IMG/VR virus record: IMGVR_UViG_3300033394_000001
Location: 1 to 24,031 of that record
Strand: one strand, 5' to 3'
DNA: 24,031 bases
DNA from: a virus
Shown here: positions 12,694-18,751 of the stretch, piece by piece
Position numbering within the stretch: the stretch's first letter is position 1
Layout of the letters: every line of letters begins with the position of its first letter
Notes under the pieces: model-generated
Told to the model about the DNA's origin: nothing
The model's database searches: none
Seen by the model: only the letters and a program-made list of their open reading frames with translations
Program-made: the position numbers and the translations under genes

Positions 12694-15600
12694 TCACGGT
12701 TCATCGATGCGGACAGTGCCGCGCACCGCACTCTGCCCCATGCGCACACGGCCGGACACGGTGCCAGCGCCGAAGATCGCGGACGCTGAGACGGCGGCTC
12801 GGATGATCGCGCGTCCGATGAGCTTGCCGACCGTGCCGAGCGCGTCCAGCTGACTCTCGAGCACGCTCACCAGGTCCTCGGCGACGCGGACGATGCCGCG
12901 CACGCGGACCGCCTCGTCGAGCAGGCTCTCGAGCTCGGTGTGCACGCGCGCGAGCGCGCGGCTGCGTGTGGCGACTTCGATCGACCGGACCAGGTCCTCG
13001 GCGATGCGGACGAGCCCGAGCGCGTGCGCACTGCTGTGCACGATCTGGACGGCGTGCGTGACGGCGCGCAGCAGTCCGCGGCTGTGTGTGGCGCTCTCGG
13101 GCAGCTGCTCTGCCTCATCGACGCTCTTGAGCAGCCCCAGCGCGTGCCGCGCGCTCTCAGTGAGCTGCACGAGCGCCGAAACCGCTCGGCTGAGGTCCCT
13201 TGGGGCCCGCGTGCTCTCGCCCCGCTGCACGAGCTCATCCGATAGACGTGCGAGCGTGCGAGTGCGCACAGCGCCCTCTATCAGCGTCACCAGGGCGCCC
13301 ACGGCCCGAATCAAGCCGACCCGCCGGGCGAGCGTCTCAGCGAGCTGCACCGTCTCGCTGACCGCCTTGCGCAGCCCGGTGACGCGCAGCGCCTGCTCTA
13401 CGATCTGGACCGGCTCGCTGTGCTGGCGCATGCGACCGCGCAAAAGATCAGCAGATTCAAGCACTTGCACGACTTCCGAGAGCGCCCGTGCGAGCGTGCG
13501 GGCACGCACCTGCGCGTCGGCGAGCTGCACGAGCTCATCGATAGCGCGGACGGCGCTCCGCAGCCGAGCGATCGTTTCGGCGACCGAGAGCTGCTCATCC
13601 CTGAAGCGAAGCAGCCCGCGCACCCGGCTCGTCGACTCAGAAAGCTGCAGCGCCTCGTCGGCCGCGCGCACCAGGCCGCGCACCTGCAGTGCGCTCCCCA
13701 GCACCTGTAGCGCCTCGTCGGCCACGCGCACAAGCGCGAACATGCGCGCCACGCTCTGGGCCAGCCGCTCTGTCTCATCGACCGCGCGGGCAAGCGTCCG
13801 CACGCGCTCCGCGTCCTCGAGCGCATTTTCGAGCTCATCGGTCGCACGCACCAGTCCGCGGATCGCGGCGAGCGTTTGCGCGACCTGCACGAGCTCACCG
13901 TGCGCCCGGACGAGTCCCAGCGCGCGCACTGCGCCCTCGCTGCTCTCGATCACGTCGGCGAGCACGCGGACGAGGCCACGTACGCTGACCGAGTCTTCGA
14001 GCAGCTGCAGCGCCTCGTCGATGACTTGCACAATCTTCGCGACGCCGGCCTGGACGACGTCCTCGAGTATTCGTTCCGTCTCGTCGACGGCGCGCACCAG
14101 GCCGCGCAACTTGGCTGCGCTCTCGGTGAGCTGCACGAGCTCGGATATGGACCGGATCAGCGTCCGCGCTGCGGCGTGCGTCTGTGCGAGCTGCTCGAGC
14201 TCCTGGACCGCTCTGGCGAGCGCGCGGGCGCGCACGGCGCTCTCTGAGATGCTCTGCGACTCGCTGACCGCTCTGGCGAGTGCGCGGATGCGGGCGAGTG
14301 TCTCGCCGAGCTCCAGCGCTTCGCTGACCGCTTTGCAGATGGCGCGAATGTGCGCCACGTCCTCGGCGATCTGCTCTGGCTCATCGACCGCGCGCGAGAG
14401 CGCGCGCATGCGCGCAGACGTCTCGTCGGCTGTGATGCTCTCGCCCGCCAGCCGCGCCATCGTGCGCACGCGGAGCACGTCCTGCTCGGCCGTGACGGAT
14501 CCGTCCCGGGTCCGCGCCATCGTGCGCGCACGCCCGGGCACCTCGGCGAGCGTCACCGCGTCGCCTGCAGCGCGAATCAGTCCGCTCGCGCGCGCGATGC
14601 TCTCGGCCACATCGACCGCCTCGCTGATCTGGCGGATCAGTGCACGCACGCCGGCGCGCGTCTCGTCTGGGCTGAGCTCCTCGCTGCGCTGGCGCGAGAG
14701 CTCGCGTGCGGCGAGCCGCGTCTCATCCAGCTCGACCGTCTCGCCGTGCACCTGCGCCAGCAGCGCGCCCGAGACGTTCTCGATCACGCAGTGCAGCTGC
14801 GCGCGGCCGGCTGCAAGGACGAATTGCCAGGAAATGGCATAGCCCGTGTCCGAGTAATTGACCATCAGCGCGCCGAGGTCGGTCGACACTGTGCGGCAGC
14901 GCAGCACGTGCTGCAGCAGATGCTCCTGCTGTTCGTTCGACGTGCTCTGACCGTCTTCGGAGTTGACCTGCACGCAGCCGATCACTGCAGGCTCGCGGTC
15001 GTTCGCCGCTACGTAGCTGAGCGACTGCGGGCCCGCATCGACGTCCTGCTCGAGCGTCCCGACGGTTTGCACGCGAGAGCCTCCGAACAGGATGCAGTGC
15101 GGCCTCCAGCCGATGTTGCGGTCGACGATTCCGGTCCCCGTCGGGCTGGACACAAAGCCGAATTCGGTGCGCGCACCCGGCCAGCGAATGGCGAGATAGG
15201 CGACCTGGACGGTGCCGGGCGTGTCCTGATGGTTGACCAGGCGGAATCCCGCATCGCGCTCGGGCTCTGCTTTGACTTTCCATTGCGCACCGCTGGCTGA
15301 GCTCACGCCGGCCACAAAGCCGCTGTCTGCGGCGCTGACGGGTGCCGTCGTCGTCACGCCACTCGGGATCGTGTGACAGAGCATTGCCTGCTCGGTGGCC
15401 GCGCCCAGCCGCGTGCGCAGCCGTGCACCGCCGAACGTATAGCTCGCACCTGTGATTGCCGAGTCGTTCAGCTGACCTCCGGCGCCGGCCATGAACAGCA
15501 CGTCCGGGTCGCCGATCGAGAGCGCGACCGAAGACACGTTCCCGCGCCCTGGCACGGTCGCGATCCCTGCCTGGATCTCGAGCTCTTCGCCTGCGAAAAA

Positions 15601-16989
15601 CAGGAAGTCGACGAGGTACGCCACACCGTTCGTTGCGCCGATGTTGATACGGATCCCATCGGGCACGAACGCATCGAGGTTCGCCTCGACCGCGACCGCG
15701 CCGGCCGTGCCGCTGCCGGTCTGCAGCAGCATGATCAGCTCATCGCTAGCCCCGCGGCTGTGCACCTGCGTCGTACCCACTGCGTCTACGGAGCGCATAG
15801 CGCAGGCCGCCTGCGCGGGTCCGGTAGCGCTCGCAAAGCCTCTGCAGACCGATAGATTATCGGTCAATCCTCCCGCGGTGCCGGTCCGTGTGATGCCCAG
15901 CACGAGCACGCCTTTGGGCGTACGTCCACCGAGCGTGTTGTTCGTGGCCGTGATGGTCTGCAGCCCGGTCGATGTGTTGAGCGCCACGCGCCTGTGCACC
16001 GCAGCCACGCGCGGCCGCGTATCCACCACGATCACGCGTTTCGCTGCACTGCGATTCCCGCCGTTGTCGGTGACGAATACGTACATCCGCCCTTGCGCGA
16101 TCGCACCGCGATTCGCGGTGAAGGTGATGGACGAGGCGGACCATGACGTGACGGTCTGCGTCACTTTCGTCGCAGCCGCGTAGTTGGAGCTGCTGGCGAG
16201 CTCTACCGTTCCTGCGCCCTGCGTGGCCCCAAACAGGCTGCCCGCTGCGACCGTGCTGGCACCCTGCGCGATCCAGGTATCGGCTGCCTGCGGCGATGCC
16301 GTGACGCTCGAGACCGAGATACGCGCCTCGGGAATCCGAATCGAGATGCCGTTGTTCTCTTCGCTCGAGTTCGGATTCCACGTGCGCGTGGCGGATGCAC
16401 CCGGCGATGCCTGGATCTCGATTGCGCTCGCCAGCGAGACGTCCGCGCCGAACGTCCCGCCGTTGCTCATCGTGGCCTGAATAAACGTCGTGCTGCCGGG
16501 TGCGATGTTCGATTCGGTACCCGGTACCTCATCGTCGTCGATCAGCGCGACGCGCAAGATCGCCTCATTCGAGTAGACCGTCGTGACGGACGGGGATACA
16601 GGGTCGCCCGAGCCTTGCGGATTCTCGGCAATCTGCGCAATGCCGTGCACGCCCGAGTCCGGGTCGTAGCCGCGAATCGCGATGATCTGTCCGACCATCA
16701 GCGAAGAGGTCGAGCACGTCCAGGTATACGAGGCCGGCTCGCTGCTCGCGATGCGCGTCTGGATCAGCAGCTCGGGCACGCTCGGAGGTGAGCCGCCCGA
16801 GATGTAGCGCCCGCCGGGCTGCCGGGTCCAGTCCTTGTGATGGTCCGTTACGCCGTCTTCGTTCTCCCCCTGCGCGATGAGCGCTACGAGCAGGTCCCCG
16901 TCTGCGTGCGTGGGCACCGACACCGCGAGCGAGGTGACCTCGGAGCTGCCGGACGTGGCCTCGGCGTTGCCGATCACGGTTACCGCCAC
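12694..16989 (-). CDS. Giant fibre-like tail protein with 20-residue repeats
   Basis: The gene encodes 1431 aa. Residues 1-220 resemble a phage tail domain with GDLLVALIAQGENEDGVTD and a later GQIIAIRGYDP segment. Residues around 225-320 (VTSWSASSITFTANRG, MYVFVTDNGGNRS) look like an IPT/TIG-like fold used in phage tail proteins. Residues 330-758 are beta-rich and of unknown type. Residues 759-1380 are 31 units of a 20-residue repeat of the form RxRGLxRAVxExVQLxExxA, with one two-residue insertion in unit 12. The last 50 residues (SASAIFGAGTVSGRVRMGQS) are again beta-type. The start is GTG at 16989 behind a run of seven G. It probably forms a long fibre at the tail tip for host recognition, but it is unlike known fibres in sequence. 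Confidence 0.72.
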   Translation of the reverse strand: MAVTVIGNAEATSGSSEVTSLAVSVPTHADGDLLVALIAQGENEDGVTDHHKDWTRQPGGRYISGGSPPSVPELLIQTRIASSEPASYTWTCSTSSLMVGQIIAIRGYDPDSGVHGIAQIAENPQGSGDPVSPSVTTVYSNEAILRVALIDDDEVPGTESNIAPGSTTFIQATMSNGGTFGADVSLASAIEIQASPGASATRTWNPNSSEENNGISIRIPEARISVSSVTASPQAADTWIAQGASTVAAGSLFGATQGAGTVELASSSNYAAATKVTQTVTSWSASSITFTANRGAIAQGRMYVFVTDNGGNRSAAKRVIVVDTRPRVAAVHRRVALNTSTGLQTITATNNTLGGRTPKGVLVLGITRTGTAGGLTDNLSVCRGFASATGPAQAACAMRSVDAVGTTQVHSRGASDELIMLLQTGSGTAGAVAVEANLDAFVPDGIRINIGATNGVAYLVDFLFFAGEELEIQAGIATVPGRGNVSSVALSIGDPDVLFMAGAGGQLNDSAITGASYTFGGARLRTRLGAATEQAMLCHTIPSGVTTTAPVSAADSGFVAGVSSASGAQWKVKAEPERDAGFRLVNHQDTPGTVQVAYLAIRWPGARTEFGFVSSPTGTGIVDRNIGWRPHCILFGGSRVQTVGTLEQDVDAGPQSLSYVAANDREPAVIGCVQVNSEDGQSTSNEQQEHLLQHVLRCRTVSTDLGALMVNYSDTGYAISWQFVLAAGRAQLHCVIENVSGALLAQVHGETVELDETRLAARELSRQRSEELSPDETRAGVRALIRQISEAVDVAESIARASGLIRAAGDAVTLAEVPGRARTMARTRDGSVTAEQDVLRVRTMARLAGESITADETSARMRALSRAVDEPEQIAEDVAHIRAICKAVSEALELGETLARIRALARAVSESQSISESAVRARALARAVQELEQLAQTHAAARTLIRSISELVQLTESAAKLRGLVRAVDETERILEDVVQAGVAKIVQVIDEALQLLEDSVSVRGLVRVLADVIESSEGAVRALGLVRAHGELVQVAQTLAAIRGLVRATDELENALEDAERVRTLARAVDETERLAQSVARMFALVRVADEALQVLGSALQVRGLVRAADEALQLSESTSRVRGLLRFRDEQLSVAETIARLRSAVRAIDELVQLADAQVRARTLARALSEVVQVLESADLLRGRMRQHSEPVQIVEQALRVTGLRKAVSETVQLAETLARRVGLIRAVGALVTLIEGAVRTRTLARLSDELVQRGESTRAPRDLSRAVSALVQLTESARHALGLLKSVDEAEQLPESATHSRGLLRAVTHAVQIVHSSAHALGLVRIAEDLVRSIEVATRSRALARVHTELESLLDEAVRVRGIVRVAEDLVSVLESQLDALGTVGKLIGRAIIRAAVSASAIFGAGTVSGRVRMGQSAVRGTVRIDEP
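12850..14715 (-). repeat. 31 tandem 60-bp units encoding 20-aa repeats
   Basis: The coding sequence repeats with a period of exactly 60 bases over 1866 bases, apart from a 6-base insertion in unit 12. Units are diverged in DNA sequence but keep the encoded consensus RxRGLxRAVxExVQLxExxA. No identical unspaced copies or spacers exist, so this is a protein-level array and not CRISPR. The divergence argues for selection on the protein and against very recent duplication. Confidence 0.9.
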
Positions 16990-17256: not shown

Positions 17257-17833
17257 CCGCCACGATGACGCGCGCGGTCGCTTCTGGGCCCGTGCCGTAG
17301 AGCACGCGCTCGAGCACCGCACCGCTCGCTACCACCTCGTTCGTCAGCAGGTCGCCCGTCACATCGATGCGGGTCGTGGTGCCGCCCGCTATGCGGTAGA
17401 TCCCGTTATTGGGGCCCGAGGCGCCCGGCACGGTGACTAGGCGAAAGCTCTGGCCGGCTGCGAATCCGTCTGCGGCGAAGCTGCCTGCGCTGCGCGTGAT
17501 GGTATCGGGACCAGCCTCGACGTTCGCGATTGTGATCTGCGGATTGCCGGTCATGACTACACCATCGTTCACCAGCAGCTCGCCGATGCCGGCAATGTCT
17601 TCGATCACGCTGGCGAGTTGCTCGCGCGCGGCAGCATTCGCGAGCGTCTGCGCCCAGCCGATGAGCGTAGACAGCTCGGACTGTTCGGATGCGCTCATGC
17701 CGAACATAGCGTGCAGCTGCGCGGGTGTGAGCTTGCCGCGGATCAGCTCGCGCATCGCAGAGCCGAAGGACATGACGGGAATGCGCGCCTCGCCCTCGGC
17801 GAGCCGGCCGATGAGTCGTTCAAACAGGCCCAT
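17228..17833 (-). CDS. Tail or fibre accessory protein
   Basis: The gene encodes a 201-aa protein starting at the ATG at 17833, with AAAGGAAG upstream and a 14-base overlap with the preceding gene. The first 90 residues are helical (SAMRELIRGKLTPAQLHAMFG, LSTLIGWAQTLANAAAREQL). Residues from about 105 hold a beta-type domain with TITRSAGSFAADGFAAGQSF, GPNNGIYRIAGGTTTRIDV and GDLLTNEVVASGA, a pattern common in small repeat domains of phage tail proteins. GFAAGQ recurs in the protein at 11280-11636. It lies just upstream of the giant fibre and probably belongs to the same tail-tip set. Confidence 0.65.
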   Translation of the reverse strand: MGLFERLIGRLAEGEARIPVMSFGSAMRELIRGKLTPAQLHAMFGMSASEQSELSTLIGWAQTLANAAAREQLASVIEDIAGIGELLVNDGVVMTGNPQITIANVEAGPDTITRSAGSFAADGFAAGQSFRLVTVPGASGPNNGIYRIAGGTTTRIDVTGDLLTNEVVASGAVLERVLYGTGPEATARVIVAVNELGGTAP

Positions 17834-18275
17834 GAGCTTCCTTTCGGCCGATCGGCACATCGTGAAATAGCGGGTCGTAGCGCTGCGCACGGCGCAGTGC
17901 GGTGTCCACCGAGCCCTCGTCCTGCTCGATCGCAAAAACGTCGTAGCAGCCCTCTGCGAGCGCACCGAGCACGGTAGAGCCCGAGCCATCGAACCAGTCA
18001 CAGTCTATCGCCCATCGCATGGGCTCCGCTCCGAACGCGTCTGTCAGATGTCCGCGCGGCAAACTGCATAATTTCAAGTCGGAGATCTCGAAGCTCACCG
18101 ATTCGCGGTGACAATCCGCGCGGTAGCGCGTGATGCGCAATGCAGAATTGCGCTCGATCGAGAAGCGCTTCACGGGCCTCCTACAGATGGCGCACCACGG
18201 GGGCTCTACTTGCCCCATGCCTACGGCAACCTCTGAGTCGACCGTGCGGCTCAGATCCGCAACAAAGCCGTTCAC
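17820..18275 (-). CDS. Zinc-ribbon protein with methyltransferase-like SAM-binding tail
   Basis: The gene encodes a 151-aa protein coupled to its upstream neighbour by an ATGA overlap and overlapping the next gene by 14 bases. The N-terminal half resembles small phage zinc-binding proteins, with CAIC at residues 28-31, DCH at 54-56, then C70. The C-terminal half has DWFDGSGSTVLGALAEG (residues 93-109) and YDVFAIEQDE (111-120), followed by a helix with ALRRAQRYD. This matches motif I (FxGxGxT) and the acidic end of motif II of beta-type DNA methyltransferases, where they form the C-terminal SAM-binding end. No DPPY-type catalytic motif is present. It may be a relic, a half enzyme or a SAM-binding regulator. 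The hypothesis of homology is strong in pattern but untested. Confidence 0.55.
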   Translation of the reverse strand: MNGFVADLSRTVDSEVAVGMGQVEPPWCAICRRPVKRFSIERNSALRITRYRADCHRESVSFEISDLKLCSLPRGHLTDAFGAEPMRWAIDCDWFDGSGSTVLGALAEGCYDVFAIEQDEGSVDTALRRAQRYDPLFHDVPIGRKEAHGPV

Positions 18276-18511
18276 GGCTCGGGGTCGAGCGAGTCGTGAT
18301 GCATCGCGATTCCTTGATTCGCGCGAAAGCGCACAGCCTCGAGCTCGGTGAGCGCAAGCGCCTGCTCACGCGAGAACGGCACGAGATTGCGGATGAGCTT
18401 GGCGAGCTCGTAGCACGCCTCGTTGACTGCATCGTGACGCACGACCGCCTCTTTCGTCGGTGCGTGATACCGGAAGCGCTCGAGCAGCTCAGCATCGGTC
18501 GGTGCGGGCAT
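18272..18511 (-). CDS. acb2: Acb2-like anti-CBASS cyclic-nucleotide sponge (DUF7681-like)
   Basis: The gene encodes 79 aa, a normal length for Acb2-family proteins of about 65-95 aa. Key features are FRYHAPT at residues 13-19, a central helix, VPFSREQALALTELE at 44-58 and RFRANQGIA at 61-69. The order F-x-YH-x-P, P-x-SRE-x-ALALT-x-LE and x-x-AN-x-x-IA is the hallmark of the small phage proteins that include Acb2. Acb2 forms a hexamer binding cyclic di- and trinucleotides made by CBASS immune cyclases, so it blocks the downstream effector. The ATG at 18511 has GAGGTG just upstream, and the gene overlaps the next by the ATGA junction. Ligand-binding residues were not checked against a structure, so the assignment is by pattern. 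Confidence 0.7.
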   Translation of the reverse strand: MPAPTDAELLERFRYHAPTKEAVVRHDAVNEACYELAKLIRNLVPFSREQALALTELEAVRFRANQGIAMHHDSLDPEP

Positions 18512-18514
18512 CGG

Positions 18515-18751
18515 TCACCTCTTTCGCGGTTTGCCCCAGCGGGTGCTGTGCACGTGACAGCAGACCGGCGCGCGTTTGCGCGGTGGCGGAGGAGGAGGAG
18601 GAGGGCGCGGGCCAACCGGTGCGCGGGTCTGCGGCTTTGGATTGTCCACGACGCGGCGCCCTGCGCCATCACTGAGCTGGAGTCGGATCGACTGCACGAG
18701 GCAGATCAGCCCGAGCGCGAACAGCACTAGCGTCCAGTCCCCCTCGGTCAT
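18515..18751 (-). CDS. Small membrane protein with polyproline tail
   Basis: The gene encodes 78 aa starting at the ATG at 18751, which overlaps the stop of the previous gene (ATGA). One membrane segment (WTLVLFALGLICLVQ) near the N-terminus is followed by a basic segment, then a run of eight prolines, and a short tail with a Cys pair (VCCHVH). Such a layout is seen in small phage membrane or spanin-like proteins, but there is no clear lipobox and no match to a known spanin. Its stop overlaps the AGGTGA ribosome binding site of the Acb2-like gene, so the two are coupled. Confidence 0.6.
   Translation of the reverse strand: MTEGDWTLVLFALGLICLVQSIRLQLSDGAGRRVVDNPKPQTRAPVGPRPPPPPPPPRKRAPVCCHVHSTRWGKPRKR

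What the first reader, a model, noticed from the sequence alone, without database searches (positions are those of the whole stretch)
18272..18511. Acb2-like anti-CBASS protein in a late-gene cassette
Seen: a 79-aa protein with FxYHxP, then P-x-SRE-x-ALALT-x-LE and x-ANxxIA in order. Established: these are hallmarks of the small phage proteins that include Acb2, a hexameric sponge for CBASS cyclic di- and trinucleotides. Inference: this phage carries an anti-CBASS factor embedded between a membrane protein and a zinc/SAM-type protein. If so, its neighbours are candidates for further counter-defence or lysis-linked functions.
Basis: partly seen in the sequence, partly recalled or inferred. Interest (0 to 1): 0.75.

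Follow-up and report, generated by a model that had tools for sequence, protein, structure and literature searches.

The report
Acb2-family phage sponge, rearranged pocket
A small phage gene encodes a protein of the known Acb2/Tad1 family, whose studied members soak up bacterial alarm molecules, but its binding pocket has lost an arginine that nearly all relatives keep and gained one at the facing position, so it probably soaks up signals in a slightly different way.

Summary
A 79-aa ORF lies on the minus strand at 18511-18272, with a good ribosome-binding site and the motifs described. It is a confident member of Pfam PF24729, Acb2/Tad1 hairpin (E=1e-13, 51.6 bits, cut-off 27). AlphaFold (pLDDT 92) gives the Acb2 protomer plan, and the best-ranked PDB folds are T4 Vs.4-cGAMP and Acb2, although no Foldseek E-value is significant.

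Against the solved T4 Vs.4-cGAMP contacts, Tyr8 (Y15 here) and most hexamer-interface positions are kept. The phosphate-region lysine K23 (Arg/Lys in all but a few relatives) is N30, and R79 is Q66. Arginine instead appears at R61, which equals T4 S74, a position whose mutation disturbs cGAMP binding.

Across 199 family members the two states exclude each other: basic residue at 30 without R61 in 176, R61 without a basic 30 in 23, no exceptions (two frame-broken sequences left out). Positions 30 and 61 face each other in the hairpin. This looks like one pocket arginine supplied from either helix, and it defines a layout not seen in any solved member found here.

Best reading: a hexameric cyclic-nucleotide sponge with a re-tooled pocket and unknown ligand. 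Family known; pocket variant apparently undescribed; function untested.

The parts
18272..18511 (-). acb2-like gene, 79 aa, PF24729 Acb2/Tad1 hairpin protein
   Evidence: ORF; Pfam E=1e-13, 51.6 bits vs cut-off 27; AlphaFold pLDDT 92 with helices 6-13, 20-43, 48-70
18512..18524 (-). ribosome-binding site AAAGAGGTGACCG just before the ATG
   Evidence: sequence read directly
18467..18469 (-). codon of Y15, equal to T4 Vs.4 Tyr8, a base-stacking cGAMP contact; conserved
   Evidence: gap-free alignment; contact from PMC10097602
18422..18424 (-). codon of N30, equal to T4 K23 and PaP2 K26; Arg or Lys in nearly all relatives, lost here
18329..18331 (-). codon of R61, equal to T4 S74; arginine gained at the facing pocket position
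   Evidence: S74N disturbs cGAMP interaction (PMC10097602)
18314..18316 (-). codon of Q66, equal to T4 R79, a cGAMP contact; changed here
   Evidence: contact from PMC10097602
18302..18304 (-). codon of M70; Arg in 144 of 151 relatives
17820..18275 (-). downstream neighbour, 151 aa, GTG start overlapping the acb2-like stop by 4 bases; Cys-pair region and a DxFxGSG-like motif resembling DNA-methyltransferase motif I; no significant family hit
18515..18751 (-). upstream neighbour, 78 aa, one predicted membrane segment and a proline-rich tail; no family hit

Best explanation
This is a hairpin-only protein of the Acb2/Tad1 family from a tailed phage of unknown host. Inferred mechanism: six copies pack through the long helical hairpins. 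Pockets formed between pairs of protomers then bind and hold a cyclic oligonucleotide immune signal such as a CBASS product, so the host effector is not switched on. In this protein the positive charge that type members supply from helix 2 (K23 in T4, K26 in PaP2, Arg in most relatives) comes instead from R61 on helix 3, directly opposite. Shown here: family, fold, retained tyrosine and assembly positions, and the mutually exclusive R30/R61 pattern. Inferred: hexamer, ligand binding, sponge activity and anti-CBASS effect. The ligand is not known and may differ from that of Acb2.
For: Pfam PF24729 E=1e-13, and 51.4 bits in the 59.7-kb parent contig with none of 14 control genomes ringing. AlphaFold pLDDT 92 with the Acb2 plan. 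Foldseek ranks 1-4 of the PDB are Vs.4-cGAMP and Acb2 chains, TMq 0.55-0.60. The family profile finds PDB 9ptq 'Acb2 homolog 43' (E=1.4e-9) and Tad1 chains. Of the T4 positions needed for hexamer formation (L29, A66, A73, A77; PMC10097602), L36, A53 and A64 carry the same residue and V60 is the second commonest in the family. Y8, a cGAMP base-stacking residue, is Y15. The loss of basic 30 goes with R61 in 23 of 23 cases, and R61 is absent in all 176 sequences with basic 30. Both positions lie in the cGAMP site of T4 Vs.4: K23 contacts cGAMP, and S74N disturbs cGAMP interaction. A scan not conditioned on either position gave 4 new sequences of one state and 6 of the other, no mixed state.
Against: Four columns that are over 90% conserved differ here (N30, R63, Q66, M70), which could also mean loss of function. 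The Foldseek E-values are not significant (0.6-1.7), as expected for a small helical protein. No member of the R61 layout turned up in the PDB search, and none is known to me to have been assayed. T4 F82, whose mutation costs more than 25-fold binding, is A69 here and Ala in nearly all of the short relatives.
Confidence: 0.66

Rival explanations
1. The protein keeps the fold and oligomer but has lost nucleotide binding, for instance as an escape from a host system such as Panoptes that is triggered by Acb2.
For: Four near-invariant columns are changed, two of them equal to cGAMP contacts of T4 Vs.4. Natural T-even phages carry acb2 loss-of-function changes, and T4 escapes Panoptes by losing Acb2 (PMC12657218, PMC12657230).
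Against: The ORF is intact with a good ribosome-binding site. Assembly positions and Y15 are kept, and the lost Arg is matched by R61, as in 22 other intact proteins from diverse viral contigs. Plain decay would not give a gain restricted to one facing site.
Confidence: 0.15
2. It is a sponge for a different signal (gcADPR isomers, other cyclic nucleotides or a new messenger), so it works like Acb2 but does not act against CBASS.
For: The hairpin domain is shared with Tad1, which binds gcADPR as well as cyclic oligonucleotides (PMC12043709). The pocket charges differ from all solved members found.
Against: It lacks the N-terminal beta domain of Tad1 that helps form the gcADPR pocket; only about 14 residues precede the domain.
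Confidence: 0.17
3. The short hairpin protein has a structural or regulatory phage role and no nucleotide ligand.
For: Most relatives (PHROG 1454) are listed as unknown function. Some genes sit among structural genes, for example next to portal in Gordonia phage Schomber and tail genes in S-2L.
Against: Residues at the known ligand-pocket positions are among the most conserved in the family, and gene neighbours vary widely.
Confidence: 0.05

Closest known systems
Acb2 of T4 (Vs.4, PDB 7uq2) and of Pseudomonas phage PaP2 (p26, PDB 8h2j/8ixz)
   Same: PF24729 domain; short helix plus long hairpin; Tyr at the stacking position; most assembly positions
   Different: About 16% identity to T4 Vs.4. 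Shorter loop between the long helices. No basic residue at K23/K26 or R79/R85, arginine at S74/M80 instead, no F82.
Acb2 homolog 43 (PDB 9ptq)
   Same: Solved short hairpin-only relative of 76 aa, six chains in the entry; best PDB hit of the family profile, E=1.4e-9
   Different: Has Lys at positions 30 and 66 and Met at 61, so the usual layout. Paper not held; ligand data not seen.
Short PF24729 / PHROG 1454 proteins of actinophages and Paenibacillus phages, published as putative Acb2 in Microbacterium phage Statler (PMC13348362) and mycobacteriophages Xandras and BigBubba (PMC11953737)
   Same: Length, YHxP and SRExxLALTxLE motifs, fold. These papers already annotate such actinophage genes as Acb2 or CBASS antagonist. 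The sequences compared here come from other phages of these host groups, not from the named ones.
   Different: The relatives sampled here nearly all carry Arg30 and Arg70 with no Arg61; this protein has N30, R61, M70.
Tad1 (PDB 7uav, 8kbb-8kbh)
   Same: Shares the C-terminal hairpin and its SRE..ALT.xEE motif
   Different: Tad1 has an N-terminal beta-sheet domain, absent here

Membership tests
PF24729 Acb2/Tad1 hairpin family | Curated Pfam score above cut-off (27 bits) | tested here: met
   51.6 bits, profile positions 2-57 of 58
PF24729 Acb2/Tad1 hairpin family | Long antiparallel two-helix hairpin | tested here: met
   Helices 20-43 and 48-70, pLDDT 92
Acb2 (Vs.4/p26 type) | Short N-terminal helix plus two long helices | tested here: met
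   Helix 6-13 plus hairpin; top PDB folds are 7uq2 and 8h2x, E-values not significant
Acb2 (Vs.4/p26 type) | cGAMP contacts Y8, H11, K23, R79, F82 | tested here: not met
   Only Y8 is kept (Y15); the others are P18, N30, Q66, A69 (contacts from PMC10097602)
Acb2 (Vs.4/p26 type) | Hexamer-interface residues L29, A66, A73, A77 | tested here: met
   L36, A53, V60, A64: three identical, one A to V, the second commonest in the family
Acb2 (Vs.4/p26 type) | Hexamer in solution | not testable with these tools
   No multimer prediction offered; no assay
Acb2 (Vs.4/p26 type) | Tight binding of cyclic di- and trinucleotides, inhibition of CBASS effectors | not testable with these tools
   Needs purified protein
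Tad1 | N-terminal beta-sheet domain before the hairpin | tested here: not met
   79-aa protein, all helical, domain starts at residue 15

The most novel reading that the evidence does not exclude
PF24729 sponges come in mutually exclusive pocket layouts. In one of them, which includes this protein, the essential cation moves from helix 2 (position 30) to helix 3 (position 61) and the second basic residue (66 or 70) is usually lost. This layout marks a different ligand preference from every Acb2 or Tad1 so far solved.
Probability: 0.35. Interest if true: 0.6.

Novelty: new variant of a known kind. Interest (0 to 1): 0.42.

Why it matters
Sponge proteins decide whether CBASS, Thoeris and Panoptes signals reach their effectors, and their specificity is what the arms race selects on. 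Acb2-type annotations are now transferred to many phages by profile hits alone. The pattern found here is a simple two-position read-out (30 and 61) that splits the family into testable binding classes, and it warns that a PF24729 hit does not by itself imply the Acb2 pocket.

Tried and rejected
- Sequence-only search of the PDB with the single protein gave nothing useful. The family profile was needed.
- PADLOC and NCBIfam had no hit.
- A wide alignment that included T4 had no stretch conserved enough to scan with.
- Plain gene decay was considered because four near-invariant residues differ. It became less likely once R61 proved to replace R30 in all 23 cases.
- The 30/61 table excludes two sequences whose reading frames look broken: L116 (Cys30, no R61, unrelated N-terminus) and L049 (C-terminus out of frame). 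With L116 kept there would be one sequence lacking both.
- Independence is weaker than the raw count suggests. On the best tree, built without columns 30, 61 and 70, the traits change 6 times with 6 independent pairs, all opposite. Only one pair rests on well-supported branches, so fewer origins are not excluded. The naive Fisher p of 1e-30 ignores relatedness.
- Sampling: one search selected on R61 itself; one search selected on neither position.
- The nearest terminase relative, Brevundimonas phage Strzyga, shows no annotated counterpart near its terminase. Its unannotated ORFs were not scanned.
- Foldseek matches outside Acb2/Tad1 (complex II, ESAT-6 and others) are generic helical hairpins and were discarded.
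- The promoter scan of the region was uninformative.
- The original Huiting 2023 and Cao 2024 papers are not held, so statements on PaP2 K26 rest on the alignment to T4 K23 and on recall.

Full report
WHAT IS THERE. The ORF lies on the minus strand, 18511 to 18272, ATG start, 79 aa. AAAGAGGTGACCG precedes the start, and the stop overlaps the next gene's GTG by four bases, so it sits in a tightly packed, co-directional gene run. The window is an IMG/VR virus record of 24,031 bp. It matches positions 606-24636 of a 59,688-bp contig (IMGVR_UViG_3300033404_000002) at 99.992%. A third contig carries the same 79-aa protein. The long contig appears to begin and end inside the tape-measure gene (by inspection), so it is probably near a full circular map. 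It encodes terminase, portal, RecT, a YqaJ recombinase and a primase-helicase. I saw no integrase, but I did not search all its genes. The best terminase match among isolated phages is from a Brevundimonas phage, 47% identity, so the host is unknown.

FAMILY AND FOLD. Pfam PF24729 (Acb2/Tad1 hairpin) is hit at E=1e-13, 51.6 bits against a cut-off of 27; PHROG 1454 at 4.7e-18. T4 Vs.4 and the phage relatives tested hit the same Pfam family. AlphaFold on 55 homologues gives mean pLDDT 92 with helices 6-13, 20-43 and 48-70. [quoted passage not shown] Foldseek places Vs.4-cGAMP and Acb2 chains first to fourth in the PDB, but with E-values of 0.6-1, as expected for a small helical protein. A profile search of PDB sequences finds 9ptq 'Acb2 homolog 43' (1.4e-9) and Tad1 chains (1e-4). 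There is no Tad1-type N-terminal beta domain.

POCKET AND ASSEMBLY. Jenson et al. (PMC10097602) report that in hexameric Vs.4 the cGAMP contacts are Y8 and F82 (stacking) and Y8, H11, K23, R79 (hydrogen bonds and salt bridges). S74N disturbs cGAMP interaction, and L29, A66, A73 and A77 are needed for the hexamer. The alignment is gap-free across Y8-K23 and across T68-F82. Assembly positions map to L36, A53, V60, A64, all common in the family. Y8 maps to Y15. But K23 maps to N30, R79 to Q66, F82 to A69, and S74 to R61. In 151 homologues column 30 is Arg or Lys in 148, column 63 is Trp in 142 and column 70 is Arg in 144; this protein has N, R and M there.

THE ARGININE SWITCH. R61 was first seen only in this protein and in L017 and L125, the other intact sequences lacking a basic residue 30. 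A scan for the motif [VA]RMWAN, which selects on R61 only, brought in many further family members, none with a basic residue at 30. All ten tested exceed the Pfam cut-off. A scan on residues 50-59, which touches neither position, gave four new sequences with R30 and no R61, and six with N/S30 and R61. The combined table of 199 sequences is 176 basic-30 without R61, 23 R61 without basic-30, and none in the other two classes. The two broken sequences left out are named under Tried and rejected. In the model's hairpin (helices 20-43 and 48-70) residues 30 and 61 are opposite each other, since 30+61 = 43+48. A second basic residue behaves alike: it sits at 66 in T4, PaP2 and 9ptq, at 70 in most short relatives, and at neither in 21 of the 23 R61 proteins. 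On the best tree, built without these columns, the two traits change together six times, but branch support is poor and fewer origins cannot be excluded. Related R61 proteins (L227 type) have no match in isolated phages at E 1e-5, and a profile of R61 proteins found no closer PDB relative than 9ptq at E=0.012.

HOW IT MOST LIKELY WORKS. A hexameric sponge that holds a cyclic nucleotide immune signal, with the phosphate-binding arginine supplied by helix 3. Fold, family and residue pattern are shown by computation. Assembly, binding, ligand identity and anti-CBASS effect are inferred. Loss of binding and a different ligand are the serious rivals.

WHAT IS KNOWN. Acb2 and Tad1 as sponges are established. 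Short Acb2-like genes in actinophages are already annotated in print (Statler, PMC13348362; Xandras and BigBubba, PMC11953737). I found no description of the 30/61 alternation in the open-access papers held, which exclude several key subscription papers. The member is therefore ordinary; its pocket layout is the new part.

Noticed in passing
window 12694-16989, minus strand: A 1431-aa protein whose second half is an array of about 30 imperfect repeats with an exact 20-residue period (34% identity at lag 20, 32% at lag 40), of the form RxLARAVxExxQLxESxxRx. No Pfam search was made; PHROGs gave only a weak match. It lies between the acb2-like gene and terminase.
   Followed up: partly
L007:2989-3204 (Cyanophage S-2L, record about 35196-35411): S-2L, the phage with 2-aminoadenine DNA, carries an unannotated PF24729 gene between two tail genes.
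   Followed up: partly
L009, L010 (Paenibacillus phages Likha, Bob); L005, L011 (Mycobacterium phages Sparky, Farewell): Acb2-like genes lie next to HicAB or RelBE-type toxin-antitoxin genes in unrelated phages. Several Paenibacillus phage copies are misannotated as phosphomannomutase.
   Followed up: no
window 17820-18275, minus strand: The 151-aa downstream neighbour has a Cys-pair region and a motif like DNA-methyltransferase motif I (DWFDGSGST...) but is too short for a full enzyme; only sub-threshold hits.
   Followed up: no
L125 (IMGVR_UViG_3300022719_000283): An R61-type Acb2-like protein on a 618,736-bp viral contig, possibly a huge phage; nearly the same protein as in the 102,757-bp contig of L017.
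   Followed up: no
G001 (59,688-bp contig), both ends: The tape-measure gene appears to be split between the two contig ends, suggesting a complete circularly permuted map although the contig is classed as linear.
   Followed up: partly
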